Shown here piece by piece: positions 934 through 5,418 of a stretch of 5,418 nt of DNA (position 1 is the first letter of the stretch; each line of letters starts with the position of its first letter). The stretch comes from Patescibacteria group bacterium (GTDB taxonomy: Bacteria; Patescibacteria; Microgenomatia; Daviesbacterales; UBA10151), in NCBI GenBank assembly GCA_023380995.1, contig JAMCTD010000085.1, positions 1 to 5,418 of the forward strand. The letters are read 5' to 3'. The notes under the pieces are model-generated. The model was not told the DNA's origin. It made no database searches and saw only the letters and a list, made by a program, of their open reading frames with translations. The position numbers and the translations under genes were made by a program.

Positions 934-1688
934 TGATGCTCCCCAAAATTATTTACCAAGATGACTGCTTATTGGTTTTAGATAAACCTCCTGGCTTAGT
1001 TGTAGATCCAGCTGATAGTGTTAAGGAAGAAACCCTGGCAGATATTTTAGTAAGGGATTTTAATATCAAGCTGTTTAGGGGAGGGATAGTCCACAGGTTG
1101 GATAAAGATACTTCAGGAATAATACTTGTTGCCAAAACCCAAGAGGCCTTAGATAATCTGCAAAATCAATTTAAAGAAAGGGATATTAAAAAAGAATATT
1201 TAGCCTTAGTTCATGGATTAATTGAGGAAAAGGGGGAGGTGGTGGGCAGTATTGGCAGAAACCCTGGCAACAGGGAGAAATTTACAGTATTAGAGGGTGG
1301 GAAAGAGGCTGTAACTGAGTATGAACCAGCAGAAAAGTTTAAAGTTCAAAGTTTAAAGTTTAAAGTTTGGTTTCCAGATTTTAATAAAATACAGATGAGA
1401 AAACTGGAAAGGCAAAATTATGGTGAATTTACTCTCCTAAAGTGTAAGCCCAAAACTGGACGGACTCATCAAATTAGGGTACATTTAAAGTATATCAACC
1501 ACCCAATTGTTTCAGATGAAAAGTATGTGGGAAGGAAGATGTACAGGTTGGATAAGAGGTGGTGTGACAGGATGTTTTTACATGCAGCAAAGATTGGGTT
1601 TAATCACCCTGTGTCTGGTGAGTGGATGGAGCTGGAAAGTGAATTGCCTGAGGATTTGAAAACAGCGTTAGTTGTCTTGTCATCATGA
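933..1688 (+). CDS. RluA-family RNA pseudouridine synthase
   Basis: Members of this family convert specific uridines in rRNA or tRNA to pseudouridine. The catalytic motif HRLDKDTSG is at residues 54-62 with the nucleophile at D57. It is preceded by the fold's opening motif LLVLDKPPGLVV (13-24), and the late motif KTGRTHQIRVHL is at 174-185. The protein has 251 residues and lacks the N-terminal S4 RNA-binding domain of RluD, so the target site cannot be named. ATG 933 overlaps the previous stop; ATG 936 is the alternative start. Residues about 137-163, between AVTEYEPAEKF and GEFTLLKCKP, look like an insertion relative to typical relatives. The insertion begins with a heptamer tandem repeat encoding KFKVQSLKFKV. 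Bases 1205-1233 (encoding LALVHGLIEEK, a natural-looking stretch) recur inverted inside the antiporter gene. The antiporter follows after 13 bases, probably in the same operon. Confidence 0.93.
   Translation: MMLPKIIYQDDCLLVLDKPPGLVVDPADSVKEETLADILVRDFNIKLFRGGIVHRLDKDTSGIILVAKTQEALDNLQNQFKERDIKKEYLALVHGLIEEKGEVVGSIGRNPGNREKFTVLEGGKEAVTEYEPAEKFKVQSLKFKVWFPDFNKIQMRKLERQNYGEFTLLKCKPKTGRTHQIRVHLKYINHPIVSDEKYVGRKMYRLDKRWCDRMFLHAAKIGFNHPVSGEWMELESELPEDLKTALVVLSS
1205..1233 (+). repeat. 29-bp inverted repeat, probable source copy (in pseudouridine synthase gene)
   Basis: These 29 bases, starting CTTAGTTCATGG and ending GAGGAAAAGG, are the exact reverse complement of 2066-2094; pairing fails at the next base on both sides. 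Here they encode residues fitting the normal YLALVHG motif of RluA-family enzymes, so this is taken as the native copy. Confidence 0.95.
1334..1368 (+). repeat. Five tandem AAAGTTT/AAAGTTC heptamers inside the pseudouridine synthase gene
   Basis: Five 7-base units follow head to tail: AAAGTTT, AAAGTTC, then AAAGTTT three times. They encode KFKVQSLKFKV at the start of an apparent protein insertion. A related four-unit array lies in tgt at 4354-4381 in the same reading frame. Confidence 0.9.
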
Positions 1689-1701: not shown

Positions 1702-2088
1702 ATGAATAACATTTTCATACAACTTGCCATTATTTTAACCTTTGCATCCACCCTTGGATTTATAATATATAAACTTAAACTGCCTCTTTTAATTGCTTAT
1801 TTAATAGCAGGACTATTGCTTGCTGCAGCATCTTCTTTTGATGTCAGTAAATCTTTGGCCCTGTCTTTTTTACCTGATATTGGCATTGCTTTTGTTTTAT
1901 TTTTAGTGGGGATGGAGCTTGACCTTAGGGAGCTTAAGAATTTTGGAAAGCAGATTCTTACTGTGGGAATTTTGCAAGTGATCATTACCGGGACGCTTGG
2001 CACTTATATTGCCCAAAGTTTTGGTTTTAGCACCAGGGAAGCAATATACATGGGTATTGGTTTGTCCTTTTCCTCAATTAATCCATGA
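1702..2088 (+). CDS. CPA2/Kef-type cation:proton antiporter, N-terminal fragment ended by in-frame TGA
   Basis: This is the first 128 residues of an inner-membrane monovalent cation:proton antiporter (Na_H_Exchanger domain, CPA2 family). Hydrophobic segments lie at about residues 4-23, 28-44, 57-75, 86-108 and 113-127. The family hallmarks LPLLIAYLIAGLLL and FLVGMELDL are present. Translation stops at TGA 2086-2088 within the motif that usually reads FSS followed by hydrophobic residues and then KLL; here it reads FSSINP-stop-TKLLLDRKD. The frame stays open afterwards to 3405, with no insertion or deletion, so one codon separates this piece from a full-length protein of about 567 codons. The stop and the odd residues INP before it lie in a 29-base inverted copy of the upstream gene. 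It could be a real nonsense mutation, a sequencing or assembly artefact, or, less likely, a read-through site. Confidence 0.85.
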   Translation: MNNIFIQLAIILTFASTLGFIIYKLKLPLLIAYLIAGLLLAAASSFDVSKSLALSFLPDIGIAFVLFLVGMELDLRELKNFGKQILTVGILQVIITGTLGTYIAQSFGFSTREAIYMGIGLSFSSINP

Positions 2089-2094
2089 ACTAAG
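2066..2094 (-). repeat. 29-bp inverted copy of the pseudouridine synthase gene carrying the TGA stop
   Basis: This is the exact reverse complement of 1205-1233, with 832 bases between the copies. It covers the antiporter codons around FSSINP-stop-T. The TGA is simply the reverse strand of TTCA in the source copy. The antiporter reading frame is kept across the patch, so it looks like a replacement rather than an insertion. In RNA the two copies could form a perfect 29-bp long-range stem. Confidence 0.95.
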
Positions 2095-2148
2095 CTTCTG
2101 CTTGATAGAAAGGATCTGACATCCTTATATGGAAAATTATCTATTGGG

Positions 2149-3405
2149 GTGCTGCTTTTGGAAGATTTAGTGGCAGTGGTAATTTTACTTGGATTATCTT
2201 CTTCCTTGTCTATTACAAACTTAGGAAAAGATTTTTTACCGGTTTTGATTTTTGCAGTTAAAGTAATATTTATTTTTGCCTTGGCTTTGGCAATTAACCG
2301 TTATATTTTAGGAAGGGTGTTTAAAGCTGTTTCAGACTCAGGAGAGCTGCTTTTTTTAACTGCTTTGGCTTGGTGTTTTGGGTTTATCACAGTATCTATG
2401 TTAATGGGTTTTTCAGTGATGATAGGAGCATTTTTGGCTGGGGTTGCTTTGGCTTCTTCCCCTTACCATTTTCAAATCCAGGGCAAAATTAAGCCTATGA
2501 GGGATTTTTTCACAGCTTTGTTTTTTGTTTATCTGGGAACCAGGGTCAGTTTTCCTTTAAATAATTTTTCTATTTATCCTTTGATTTTAATCTTTTCAAC
2601 TTATGCTGTAATTGTTAAACCACTCATATTTTTGCTGCTTTTTGGCTTGTTTGGTTTTAGGAAACACACCATGTTTCAAACAGCCATTAATTTATCCCAA
2701 GTTTCAGAGTTTTCCTTAATTATTTTACTGGTAGGATTTAACATGGGCCTGGTTAGTCAACCTACCTTGACTGTAATTGCCTTATCTTCCGTGATTTCGT
2801 TTGTTGCTTCATCAGTGATGATTTCCAATTCCCAAAGGATTTATAAATTTGTCTCTTTTGCAGTTTCTTTTTTTGAAAGAAGAAAACATCCTATATTGCA
2901 AAAAGATCCGGATTCCAAATTATCAGACCATGTTGTAGTAATAGGGGCGCACAGGGTTGGCGGGGAAATAGTGAGGTTTTTAAAAAGGGAAAGACATCCT
3001 TTGGTTGTTTTGGATTTTAACCCGCACCAAGTTGAAGTTTTATTAGCCCAACAAATACCGGTAATTTTCGGGGATATGTCTGATCCTGAGGTTTTAGATG
3101 TTTTAAACCTGGAGGAGGCTAAAATAATTATTTCTACTTCCCCTGATCTTAACGGTAATAAAACCCTGCTGGAGGATTTAAAATTAAGAGGCATTAATGT
3201 TCCGGTAATAGTCAGGGCAGAGACTGTCAAAGAGGCTCAAAGTTTATATAAAGGAGGAGCGGATTTGTGTATATTGCCGGAAGTTATGGCAGGAGATTTA
3301 TTGCTTGATATATTAAGGGAACACTTATCTGAAAAAAGTTATTTTAAAGATAGGCCCAGGATAGAATTGGAAAAACTCTCCAGAAAAACCTTAGCTTGGG
3401 GTTGA
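2149..3405 (+). CDS. CPA2/Kef-type antiporter, remainder with C-terminal TrkA-N domain
   Basis: This continues the antiporter in the same frame as the N-terminal fragment. The GTG at 2149 is only the first plausible start after the TGA; it lies in mid-motif (GVLLLEDLVAV, where Kef proteins usually have QD) and has no ribosome-binding site. Several more membrane segments follow, including MGFSVMIGAFLAGVALA and LSQVSEFSLIILLVGF, which are characteristic of the family. From about residue 260 there is a cytoplasmic Rossmann-type TrkA-N/RCK domain: VVVIGAHRVGGEIV, then the acidic D of VVLDFNP ending the second strand, suggesting NAD(H) or a related nucleotide as ligand. Such domains gate transport in Kef and Trk systems. 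Good codon structure over the whole 418 residues shows recent or no decay. If the TGA is real, this piece lacks the first membrane segments and is unlikely to transport on its own. The stop codon TGA overlaps the first hairpin of the next intergenic region. Confidence 0.85.
   Translation: MLLLEDLVAVVILLGLSSSLSITNLGKDFLPVLIFAVKVIFIFALALAINRYILGRVFKAVSDSGELLFLTALAWCFGFITVSMLMGFSVMIGAFLAGVALASSPYHFQIQGKIKPMRDFFTALFFVYLGTRVSFPLNNFSIYPLILIFSTYAVIVKPLIFLLLFGLFGFRKHTMFQTAINLSQVSEFSLIILLVGFNMGLVSQPTLTVIALSSVISFVASSVMISNSQRIYKFVSFAVSFFERRKHPILQKDPDSKLSDHVVVIGAHRVGGEIVRFLKRERHPLVVLDFNPHQVEVLLAQQIPVIFGDMSDPEVLDVLNLEEAKIIISTSPDLNGNKTLLEDLKLRGINVPVIVRAETVKEAQSLYKGGADLCILPEVMAGDLLLDILREHLSEKSYFKDRPRIELEKLSRKTLAWG
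2644..2662 (+). repeat. 19-base direct repeat, copy in antiporter gene
   Basis: GGCTTGTTTGGTTTTAGGA occurs here (encoding part of FGLFGFRK, a natural-looking stretch) and again at 5400-5418, where the window ends. The mismatch on the left is at base 2643; the right-hand limit is unknown because the other copy runs off the end. Confidence 0.9.
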
Positions 3406-3431
3406 CTACGTTCAGCTTACATGAACGTAGT
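3405..3431. repeat. Perfect hairpin, 10-bp arms and 7-base loop (first of a pair)
   Basis: The arms ACTACGTTCA (3405-3414) and TGAACGTAGT (3422-3431) pair perfectly around GCTTACA. This loop differs from that of the hairpin at 485-511 (GTTTACA) by one base, although the stems are unrelated. It begins on the last base of the antiporter stop codon. TTGAC boxes start at 3402 and 3431. No T-tract follows. Confidence 0.85.
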
Positions 3432-3433
3432 TG

Positions 3434-3460
3434 ACCACAATCATGAAAACTGATTGTGGT
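3434..3460. repeat. Perfect hairpin, 10-bp arms and 7-base loop (second of a pair)
   Basis: The arms ACCACAATCA (3434-3443) and TGATTGTGGT (3451-3460) pair perfectly around TGAAAAC. It starts exactly 29 bases after the previous hairpin. Its right arm runs into the -35 box TTGACA (3460-3465). A weaker third dyad, TATATA (3468-3473) with TATATA (3481-3486) around another 7-base loop ACCATTG, lies within the promoter itself and might be an autoregulatory operator. Confidence 0.85.
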
Positions 3461-3488
3461 TGACAAATATATAACCATTGTATATACT
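3460..3488 (+). promoter_or_regulatory. Near-consensus promoter for the toxin-antitoxin-tgt operon
   Basis: A perfect -35 box TTGACA (3460-3465) is followed after 17 bases by TATACT (3483-3488). Transcription should begin near 3495, about three bases before the antitoxin ATG at 3498, so the mRNA would be leaderless or nearly so. The TATATA dyad inside the spacer and -10 region is a plausible binding site for the antitoxin, since RelB-type antitoxins commonly repress their own promoter; this is inference. Confidence 0.75.
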
Positions 3489-3497
3489 TTAGTTACT

Positions 3498-3773
3498 ATG
3501 ACTACAGTAATCCATATTAAAGCTGATAAAGAAGTTAAAGAAAATGCCCAAAAGGCAGCCAAAGATCTTGGTTTGTCCTTGTCTGATGTAATTAATGCAG
3601 CCCTTAGGAATTTTATCAGAACCAGGGAAGTGATTTTTTCTGATATTCCACAAATGACTCCGGAACTGGAAAAAAGATTGGAGAGGGTTGAAGAAGATAT
3701 AAAGCATAATCGCAATATGTCTCCTAAGTTCAAGACAGCTAAGGAGTTTATAAAGTACCTGGATTCTTTATGA
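3498..3773 (+). CDS. RelB/DinJ-family antitoxin
   Basis: This 91-residue protein is the antitoxin of a type II toxin-antitoxin pair: it binds and neutralises the toxin encoded next and usually represses its own operon. The N-terminal half fits a ribbon-helix-helix DNA-binding domain: the strand TTVIHIKAD (residues 2-10), helix KEVKENAQKAAKDLG, turn LSLSD, and helix VINAALRNFI. The C-terminal half is charged (TPELEKRLERVEEDIKHNRN) and is expected to wrap the toxin. ATG 3498 is chosen because the promoter ends at 3488; an in-frame GTG at 3456 would lie upstream of the -35 box. The gene ends ATGA, overlapping the toxin start by four bases. Bases 3599-3625 recur inverted at the right end of the window. 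Confidence 0.9.
   Translation: MTTVIHIKADKEVKENAQKAAKDLGLSLSDVINAALRNFIRTREVIFSDIPQMTPELEKRLERVEEDIKHNRNMSPKFKTAKEFIKYLDSL
3599..3625 (+). repeat. 27-base inverted repeat, copy in antitoxin gene
   Basis: The sequence from AGCCCTTAGG to CAGAACCAG is the exact reverse complement of 5377-5403, bounded by mismatches on both sides. Here it encodes AALRNFIRTR in the second helix of the antitoxin, a natural position, so this is taken as the source copy. Confidence 0.95.
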
Positions 3774-4027
3774 TCATATCTTCGAATAAGGCTTTCGAAA
3801 AGGATTATAAAAAATTGCCTAAAAATATCCAGGAGAGATTTAAAGAAAGAATCCTACTTTTTCAAAAAGACCAATTTGATCCGGTTTTGAATAATCACTC
3901 GTTGAAGGGGCAATATTTAGGTTATAGAAGTTTAAATATATCAGGTGATTTGCGGGCAATCTTTAAAATAAATGGTAGTGAAGTTATTTTTGTAGCAATA
4001 GGTTCCCACAGCAATTTATATGGTTAA
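3770..4027 (+). CDS. RelE/YafQ-family mRNA interferase toxin
   Basis: This 85-residue toxin belongs to the RelE/YafQ family, ribosome-dependent endoribonucleases that cut mRNA in the A site. The fold is recognisable: FEKDYKKLP at the N-terminus, a helix pair, NHSLKGQYLGYRSLNI, then GDLRAIFKI and the closing VIFVAIGSHSNLYG. By alignment with E. coli YafQ, H43, D60 and H80 match residues implicated in catalysis, and Y84 sits near the position of its final Phe. The YafQ H63 and W68 positions are N56 and L61 here, so activity is likely but not certain. It overlaps the antitoxin by four bases (ATGA) and tgt by eight, with no ribosome-binding site of its own, indicating translation coupled to the antitoxin. 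Confidence 0.9.
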   Translation: MIISSNKAFEKDYKKLPKNIQERFKERILLFQKDQFDPVLNNHSLKGQYLGYRSLNISGDLRAIFKINGSEVIFVAIGSHSNLYG

Positions 4028-5216
4028 TTTTAAGGTTTTACATAAGGATGGGCAAGCCAGAATAGGAAGGTTAACTACACCTCATGGAGTGATTGAAACC
4101 CCAAACTTTAATCCAGTAGGAACACAAGGATCTGTGAAGGCTTTAGGGCCCCGTGAGCTTACCGAAATCGGCATCCAGATGATTTTGGCAAATACTTACC
4201 ATTTGATGCTTAGACCTGGCGCAGACCTCATAGAGAAGTTTGGAGGGTTGCATAAGTTTATGGGTTGGGATAAGCCAATTATGACTGATTCAGGGGGTTT
4301 CCAGGTATTTTCCCTGGGAGTAGCTTTGGAACATGGGGGAAGTAAAGTAGTGAAAAGTGCAAAGTTCAAAGTGCAAAGTGAAGATGAAAAGCAAAGACCA
4401 AGATTAAATAAAATCACAGAAGAAGGGGTGACTTTCCAGTCACACATTGATGGTTCAAAACATATCTTAACCCCTGAAAAATCCATAAAAATCCAACACC
4501 AACTTGGAGCTGATTTAATTGTGGCCTTTGATGACCATGAATCTTCCAAGCACACTAAAAAAGAAATGCTTGAATCAATAGAACTAACAGAAAAGTGGGG
4601 ATTAAGAAGTCTTAAGGCTCATAAGGGATTTGAACAAAAGCAATTAATGTATGGAGTGGTTCATGGAGGAACACACAAGGATTTGAGAGTAGGATCTGCC
4701 AAATTTACTGATGAATACTTTGATGCCATTGCCATTGGTGGTATTTATGGTGATAAAAAGAGCCTTGGTAAAATTGTGGAATGGGTAGTTTCAGAAGTTT
4801 CAGAAACCAAGCCCAGACATCTTTTGGGCATTGGAGAGGTGGAAGACTTATTTAATGGAATTGAGCGGGGGATAGACTTTTTTGACTGTGTAGCACCAAC
4901 TAGGCGGGCAAGGTTTGGCTCTCTGTATATCTCGCCCGGAAATGGCGGCAATAGGGCAAATAGCTTCGCGCTTAATATCAGGCAAAGTAAATTTATTTCC
5001 GATAAAAAACCTGTTGATTCTAACTGTAATTGTTACACCTGTCTTAACTTTTCCAAGGCTTATCTTCGCCACTTATACATGTCAGGAGAAATCCTATATC
5101 ACAATTTAGCCACATACCATAATGTCTATTTTATAAATAACTTAGTAAAAATGATAAGAGAGGCAATCGGGGCAAATAAACTTGATAAATTAAAACTTAG
5201 CTGGTTAGACTATTAA
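4020..5216 (+). CDS. tgt: tRNA-guanine transglycosylase
   Basis: Tgt exchanges the wobble guanine of GUN-anticodon tRNAs for a queuosine precursor. The protein has 398 residues. D90 (MTDSGGFQVFSL) and D289 (FDCVAPTRRARFG) match the two catalytic aspartates, the latter being the nucleophile. The zinc site is C336, C338, C341 and H367. Two base-pocket positions differ from canonical bacterial enzymes: the FDEC motif is FDDH (H173), and the Gln of GIVQGG is His (GVVHGG, H215). GGLAVGE is GGIYGDK. Residues about 101-129, between FSLG and NKITEEGV, form a loop insertion longer than in E. coli Tgt; it contains a heptamer-repeat-encoded KFKVQS. The gene starts inside the toxin gene with no ribosome-binding site, so it depends on the toxin-antitoxin promoter as far as can be seen. 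A hairpin terminator follows the stop. Confidence 0.95.
   Translation: MVNFKVLHKDGQARIGRLTTPHGVIETPNFNPVGTQGSVKALGPRELTEIGIQMILANTYHLMLRPGADLIEKFGGLHKFMGWDKPIMTDSGGFQVFSLGVALEHGGSKVVKSAKFKVQSEDEKQRPRLNKITEEGVTFQSHIDGSKHILTPEKSIKIQHQLGADLIVAFDDHESSKHTKKEMLESIELTEKWGLRSLKAHKGFEQKQLMYGVVHGGTHKDLRVGSAKFTDEYFDAIAIGGIYGDKKSLGKIVEWVVSEVSETKPRHLLGIGEVEDLFNGIERGIDFFDCVAPTRRARFGSLYISPGNGGNRANSFALNIRQSKFISDKKPVDSNCNCYTCLNFSKAYLRHLYMSGEILYHNLATYHNVYFINNLVKMIREAIGANKLDKLKLSWLDY
4354..4381 (+). repeat. Four tandem AAAGTGC-type heptamers inside tgt
   Basis: The units are AAAGTGC, AAAGTTC, AAAGTGC and AAAGTGA, head to tail. They encode AKFKVQSE, sharing KFKVQS and the same codon phase with the array at 1334-1368 in the pseudouridine synthase gene. 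Confidence 0.88.
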
Positions 5217-5272: not shown

Positions 5273-5418
5273 CTACACTACAGGTGCACCGCCTGTTGGG
5301 TTTTGTTCACCACCTTGTTCTCCTCCCATTCCGCTGTCAGCCGGCATAGCAGGTTGTTCTGAAACTGGTTCTGAAACTGGTTCTGATAAAATTCCTAAGG
5401 GCTTGTTTGGTTTTAGGA
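5273..5418 (-). CDS. Unrecognised protein, C-terminal tail only (5' part outside window)
   Basis: An open frame enters from the right edge and ends at TAG (5275-5273), giving 47 residues. The tail reads SEPVSEPVSEQPAMPAD, then a Gly/Glu/Gln-rich stretch (SGMGGEQGGEQ) ending NPTGGAPVV. It is low-complexity, probably disordered, and converges on tgt. The codons are GC-richer than those of the other genes. No family can be assigned from this tail. The first 14 or so residues (LKPNKPLGILSEP) come from bases 5377-5418, which duplicate the antitoxin and antiporter genes, so they may not belong to the real protein. Confidence 0.6.
   Translation of the reverse strand, partial: LKPNKPLGILSEPVSEPVSEQPAMPADSGMGGEQGGEQNPTGGAPVV
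5358..5386 (-). repeat. 12-base tandem repeat encoding SEPV units
   Basis: TCTGAAACTGGT is repeated twice (5358-5381), with a further TCTGA. On the minus strand it encodes SEPVSEPVSE. The third partial unit merges with the sequence shared with the antitoxin gene, since both contain CTGGTTCTGA. Confidence 0.8.
5377..5403 (-). repeat. 27-base inverted copy of antitoxin gene at right end
   Basis: This is the exact reverse complement of 3599-3625. It joins the convergent gene's tandem repeat on its left and overlaps by four bases (GGCT) with a copy of the antiporter gene on its right. Confidence 0.95.
5400..5418 (+). repeat. 19-base direct copy of antiporter gene, running off the window end
   Basis: It is identical to 2644-2662. 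The match continues to the last base, so its true length is unknown. Together with 5377-5403 it makes the last 42 bases entirely duplicated from elsewhere in the window. Confidence 0.9.

What the first reader, a model, noticed from the sequence alone, without database searches (positions are those of the whole stretch)
2066..2094. Antiporter stop codon lies inside a perfect 29-base inverted copy of the upstream gene
Seen: 2066-2094 is the exact reverse complement of 1205-1233. The patch keeps the antiporter frame but replaces the usual hydrophobic residues after FSS with INP-stop-T. The source copy encodes a normal RluA-family motif. Inference: the antiporter was overwritten by template switching or conversion from the neighbouring gene, giving a nonsense codon without a frameshift. 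An amplification or assembly chimera would look the same. If real, it is a clear case of a multi-base mutation copied from the opposite strand, and the transcript could also form a 29-bp stem.
Basis: partly seen in the sequence, partly recalled or inferred. Interest (0 to 1): 0.78.

Follow-up and report, generated by a model that had tools for sequence, protein, structure and literature searches.

The report
Inverted copy chimera breaks antiporter gene
A transporter gene in this uncultured bacterium's DNA record is interrupted by a tiny upside-down copy of the gene next door; the same record carries more such copied scraps at its end, so it is most likely a copying error made while the DNA was amplified, prepared or assembled, although a real mutation is not excluded.

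Summary
2066-2094 is the exact reverse complement of 1205-1233 and puts an in-frame TGA (2086-2088) into a cation:proton antiporter gene. It is far beyond chance: longest inverted match 17 nt in 200 shuffles, and 0 inverted exact pairs of 22 nt or more in 1,056,095 bases of relatives. The antiporter is the recipient: 20 of 20 syntenic relatives and 120 of 120 listed homologues keep T, four hydrophobic residues and K there. Only about 13 of the 29 bases need have been overwritten; the outer 12 and 4 probably matched beforehand (inferred from relatives).

Three local copies in 5.4 kb, with otherwise undecayed frames, point to a read-level chimera (strand switching during amplification or library making) kept by the assembler: 0.64. 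A real long-range double template switch is the main rival: 0.27. Raw reads, which I could not reach, would decide.

The parts
2066..2094 (+). Recipient patch: exact reverse complement of 1205-1233, inside the antiporter frame; holds the TGA at 2086-2088
2066..2077 (+). Left 12 nt of the patch (CCTTTTCCTCAA), probably native: inferred annealing site of the first switch
   Evidence: relative L011 has the same 12 nt at this place without a patch; inference
2078..2090 (+). About 13 nt that must have been overwritten
   Evidence: differs from the conserved motif in 20 of 20 relatives; exact limits inferred
2091..2094 (+). TAAG, probably native: inferred point of return to the original template, in register
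   Evidence: 6 of 20 relatives have TTAAG here; inference
1205..1233 (-). Donor of the patch, inside the RluA-family pseudouridine synthase gene (930-1688 +); normal family motif
1702..3405 (+). Cation:proton antiporter gene (Na_H_Exchanger + TrkA_N), interrupted by the stop at 2086-2088; both sides otherwise open in one frame
5377..5403 (+). Second inverted scrap: exact reverse complement of 3599-3625 (27 nt)
3599..3625 (-). Donor of the second scrap, inside the RelB-like antitoxin gene
5400..5418 (+). Third scrap: exact direct copy of 2644-2662 (19 nt), up to the window's last base; overlaps the second scrap by GGCT
2644..2662 (+). Donor of the third scrap, inside the antiporter gene

Best explanation
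The patch is a technical chimera kept in the record. During whole-genome amplification (such as multiple displacement amplification, MDA) or library preparation, a growing strand ending in CCTTTTCCTCAA annealed to its complement in the neighbouring gene (1222-1233), copied about 17 nt, and fell back onto its own template at TAAG. The assembler kept it, presumably because coverage was low. The same process made the two scraps at 5377-5418. Shown: the three exact copies, their orientation and distance, the visible 4-nt overlap between the second and third scrap, and which copy is foreign. Inferred: the 12-nt and 4-nt switch points, the amplification or library step, and the low coverage.
For: Two exact inverted pairs (29 and 27 nt) and an abutting 19-nt direct copy in one 5.4-kb record, against 0 inverted pairs of 22 nt or more in 1,056,095 bases of relatives. 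With the upper limit from those zero counts (3 per 1,056,095 bases; 0.015 expected in the window) two pairs would have a probability of about 1e-4 by hand, if independent. The last scraps reach the window's final base. All donors lie within 2.8 kb; two of three are inverted; the visible overlap is 4 nt (GGCT). This fits MDA chimeras: 85% inverted, mostly under 10 kb apart, 2-21 nt of complementarity (PMC1855051); two or more parts, distance 0 to over 5000 nt, overlap peak 6 nt (PMC4595205, abstract and passages). The broken gene shows no other decay: 1 of 128 and 1 of 438 residues unseen among 120 homologues, no further stop. No listed relative shares the allele.
Against: Nothing shows that the sample was amplified. 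Most chimeras described in the passages I saw are single joins; this patch needs two switches and a return exactly in register. In one MDA metagenome study chimeras were under 0.07% of the unmapped reads (PMC10945365), so a chimera would have to win over true reads. The parent contig is apparently 9,321 bases long, and I do not know that 5418 is its end. The 19-nt direct copy alone is at the edge of chance (1 of 200 shuffles reached 19 nt).
Confidence: 0.64

Rival explanations
1. A real and very recent multi-base mutation. During replication or break repair in the cell the nascent strand switched about 850 nt to the opposite strand through 12-nt microhomology, copied about 17 nt of the RluA gene, and returned in register, leaving a nonsense codon. 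The scraps at 5377-5418 would be further switches of the same complex event.
For: The geometry is that of the four-point template-switch model (PMC7954356, passages), and template switching between short inverted repeats makes multi-base changes in yeast genes (PMC8604942, passages). The return in register and the intact flanks suit a transient switch. The patch lies inside the window with normal coding sequence on both sides.
Against: 832 nt between donor and recipient is long: in the yeast study the inverted repeats that switched had shorter spacers than others. 0 comparable pairs in 1,056,095 bases of relatives. Two separate sites in 5.4 kb would need two events or one complex one. The gene is otherwise undecayed and uninterrupted in 40 of the 42 family genomes that have it.
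Confidence: 0.27
2. A purely computational error: the assembler, gap filler or polisher placed a wrong 29-base piece from the neighbouring gene's opposite strand, with no chimeric molecule.
For: The replacement is exactly length-neutral, as it would be if a wrong read were laid over a thin stretch. The copies are short (29, 27, 19 nt) and exact.
Against: The visible overlap between the second and third scrap is 4 nt (GGCT), much shorter than overlaps used by assemblers (general knowledge), so molecules carrying the junction are more likely.
Confidence: 0.07
3. A functional pair of inverted repeats, for example an invertible element that flips 1234-2065.
For: Perfect 29-bp inverted repeats flank 832 bp.
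Against: The recipient arm is absent in 20 of 20 relatives; both arms lie inside coding sequence; none of the eight frames scanned with Pfam is a recombinase.
Confidence: 0.02

Closest known systems
Inverted chimeras of multiple displacement amplification (Lasken and Stockwell 2007, PMC1855051; first of four parts of the text seen)
   Same: Segments on opposite strands joined within 10 kb through short complementary stretches; local donors
   Different: Described as single joins of two segments in reads; here a short piece with a return in register, in an assembled sequence; amplification of this sample is not known
Library-preparation chimeras, PDSM model (PMC10908179; abstract and one results section seen)
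   Same: Strands pair through inverted-repeat sequence and polymerase fills in the opposite strand
   Different: Described in human short-read data as soft-clipped read ends and low-frequency variants, not as an assembled consensus
Template-switch mutations (four-point model, PMC7954356; inverted-repeat switching in yeast, PMC8604942; passages seen)
   Same: A stretch replaced by an inverted copy from nearby, with a return to the original template
   Different: Those studies concern short-range events with a close ancestor for comparison; here 832 nt apart, and the nearest relatives are only 75% and 74% identical in DNA

Membership tests
MDA or library strand-switch chimera | Segments from the same neighbourhood (under 10 kb), mostly inverted | tested here: met
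   Gaps 832, 1751 and 2737 nt; two inverted, one direct
MDA or library strand-switch chimera | Short overlap at the junctions | tested here: inconclusive
   One junction visible (GGCT, 4 nt); the others (about 12, 4 and 10 nt) are inferred from relatives or from the adjoining tandem repeat
MDA or library strand-switch chimera | Sample was amplified, and the chimera is a minority among reads | not testable with these tools
   No reads and no sample data were available
Template-switch mutation | Inverted copy replaces native sequence, flanks intact | tested here: met
Template-switch mutation | Short range and a close ancestral sequence for comparison | tested here: inconclusive
   832 nt apart; nearest relatives 75% and 74% DNA identity
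Template-switch mutation | Present in the cell's DNA | not testable with these tools
   Needs reads or PCR
Invertible element | Inverted repeats kept at both ends in relatives, with a recombinase | tested here: not met
   Recipient arm absent in 20 of 20 relatives; no recombinase domain in the eight frames scanned
Cation:proton antiporter (KefB-type) | Na_H_Exchanger and TrkA_N domains | tested here: met
   PF00999 on both sides of the stop, PF02254 after it
Pseudogene in this record | Stop inside a gene that is intact in relatives | tested here: met
   40 of 45 family genomes have one uninterrupted frame covering at least residues 3-540 of 567 of the query; 3 have no match, 2 are in pieces

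The most novel reading that the evidence does not exclude
A Daviesbacteria-like cell went through one complex replication-repair event in which a polymerase hopped several times between strands over 0.8-2.7 kb through 4-12 nt microhomologies. It wrote 13-27 nt scraps into at least two places and silenced a conserved antiporter exactly in register: a natural bacterial case of microhomology-driven, multi-hop template switching that can be read from one sequence.
Probability: 0.2. Interest if true: 0.55.

Novelty: not a real feature. Interest (0 to 1): 0.2.

Why it matters
If it is an artefact, it is a clean example of how a short inverted copy in an assembled record makes a false pseudogene, and it suggests a simple screen: exact inverted pairs of 22 nt or more within 5 kb, of which there were none in 1,056,095 bases of relatives. 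If it is real, it would be a directly readable long-range template-switch mutation in an uncultured bacterium.

Tried and rejected
Chance match: rejected. Antiporter as donor, RluA as recipient: rejected; the RluA motif is normal in the 15 of 19 RluA-bearing loci that my pattern matched (the other 4 were not looked at by eye), and the antiporter motif is conserved in all 20 loci and 120 listed proteins looked at. Lineage-wide truncation: rejected; of 45 family genomes 42 have a match, 40 as one uninterrupted frame; G010 is in two pieces that start at contig edges, and G043 in four pieces. Short antiporter proteins in the database: of 24 hits the 13 that contain FSS all read FSST, none with the window's residues. 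Invertible element: rejected. Patch in viral contigs: 0 matches. Further patches sought as clusters of residues unseen among homologues: none in RluA, either antiporter piece or the antitoxin (only 4 homologues for the last); clusters in HK, RR, YafQ and TGT rest on 4 to 18 homologues and I did not follow them. Papers: five searches; seen were one of four parts of PMC1855051, abstract, outline and one section of PMC10908179, and passages of PMC9484634, PMC8604942, PMC7954356, PMC10945365, PMC4595205 and PMC6515389. I did not search for the record by name and make no claim that such cases are absent from print.

Unexplained: neither antiporter piece of the window was found in the protein database, although its RluA protein was.

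Full report
What the window is. A 5,418-base piece of a Daviesbacteria-like (Patescibacteria) genome: end of a histidine kinase (2-457), response regulator (547-933), RluA-family pseudouridine synthase (930-1688), cation:proton antiporter (1702-3405, interrupted), RelB-like antitoxin (3456-3773; 21.0 bits, just below the curated cut-off of 22.4), YafQ-type toxin (3770-4027) and queuine tRNA-ribosyltransferase, TGT (4020-5216). Kinase, regulator, RluA and antiporter are found together in 16 of the 21 related loci. The nearest relatives are 80% (L001) and 77% (L002) identical in the antiporter's second part, and 75% and 74% in the gene's DNA.

2066-2094 is the exact reverse complement of 1205-1233. 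In 200 dinucleotide shuffles of the window the longest inverted match was 11-17 nt. A census of exact inverted pairs with gaps of 50-5000 nt, simple repeats left out, gave 2 of 22 nt or more in the window (29 and 27 nt). It gave 0 in 1,056,095 bases of relatives (400,000 from G002, 400,000 from G040, 256,095 from L001-L021), where the longest was 21 nt, seen twice.

Which copy is foreign. In the 20 of 21 loci that reach the place (L021 does not) the antiporter reads SST, four hydrophobic residues, K. Of the 2,052 homologues found, 120 were listed. All 120 have T, four hydrophobic residues and K there (113 by a first pattern and 7 read by eye; all 120 by a second pattern). The window has SS-INP-stop-T-K, the same length, so the replacement is in register. 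The donor motif (K-x-Y-x-ALVHG) is normal in the 15 of 19 RluA-bearing loci that my pattern matched. The window's RluA protein has 2 of 251 residues unseen among 119 homologues.

How much was replaced. L011, which has no patch, carries CCTTTTCCTCAA at this very place, and 6 of 20 relatives carry TTAAG at the other end. So the left 12 and right 4 bases of the 29 are probably native and would be the annealing sites; about 13 bases (2078-2090) are what the event wrote. This is inference from relatives of about 75% DNA identity or less, not from an ancestor.

The window's last 42 bases are made of two more exact copies: 5377-5403 is the reverse complement of 3599-3625 (27 nt), and 5400-5418 repeats 2644-2662 (19 nt, to the last base). 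They overlap by GGCT, a directly visible 4-nt microhomology. The 27-nt copy begins inside a tandem repeat of 12 nt (5356-5386), so that junction may have about 10 nt of overlap (inferred). The 19-nt direct copy alone is at the edge of chance (1 of 200 shuffles reached 19); its weight comes from abutting the 27-nt copy. In 11 of 11 relatives looked at, the stretch after the TGT gene holds a short minus-strand frame rich in P, G, D, N and Q (by eye). The window has the C-terminal part of such a frame, and the scraps lie in its continuation.

Interpretation. Three exact local copies in one record, two of them inverted, with short junction overlaps, no comparable inverted pair in a megabase of relatives, and no decay in the rest of the broken gene (1 of 128 and 1 of 438 residues unseen among 120 homologues) are best explained by strand switching during amplification or library making, kept where coverage was low. 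The MDA chimera profile fits: mostly inverted, under 10 kb, 2-21 nt of complementarity (PMC1855051), sometimes more than two parts (PMC4595205). What does not fit smoothly: most described chimeras are single joins; the patch returns exactly in register; nothing tells that the sample was amplified; and chimeras can be a very small part of the reads (under 0.07% of unmapped reads in PMC10945365). A real template switch is the main rival: the four-point model and yeast cases have the same geometry but act more locally. I put 0.64 on a chimera at read level, 0.27 on a real event, 0.07 on a purely computational error and 0.02 on a functional inverted repeat.

Limits. No genome is held for the window and no reads were available. 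Its RluA protein is listed on one contig of 9,321 bases, so the window is probably part of a longer record; I do not know whether 5418 is that record's end. Neither piece of the window's antiporter appeared in the protein database, which I cannot explain. The estimate of about 1e-4 for two such pairs at the background rate is by hand, treats the pairs as independent and uses the upper limit from zero counts.

Noticed in passing
window 5377-5418: Two more exact scraps: 5377-5403 is the reverse complement of 3599-3625, and 5400-5418 a direct copy of 2644-2662. Used as evidence in the report.
   Followed up: yes
window 3405-3460 and 485-511: Three perfect hairpins with 10-bp stems and 7-nt loops. 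Two of them (29-nt period, separated by GTTGAC) are 58 nt that L002 lacks; the third sits in a TTGACTC-type repeat where L009 has none. L001 and L004 have other hairpins at the antiporter's stop codon.
   Followed up: partly
window 1332-1373 and 4352-4379: The same heptamer-type repeat (AAAGTTC or AAAGTTT) lies in frame inside both the RluA and the TGT gene; in TGT the residues there are unseen among 11 homologues.
   Followed up: partly
window 1702-3405: Neither piece of the window's antiporter was found in the protein database that holds its RluA neighbour on a 9,321-base contig.
   Followed up: no
window 3456-4027: RelB-like and YafQ-type toxin-antitoxin pair between the antiporter and TGT genes; both were found in L002, L004, L009 and L012, not in the other loci except an antitoxin match in L010.
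   Followed up: no
genome G043, contigs C36 and C18: The antiporter matches in four pieces on two contigs: a second possibly broken antiporter, or a draft-assembly fault.
   Followed up: no
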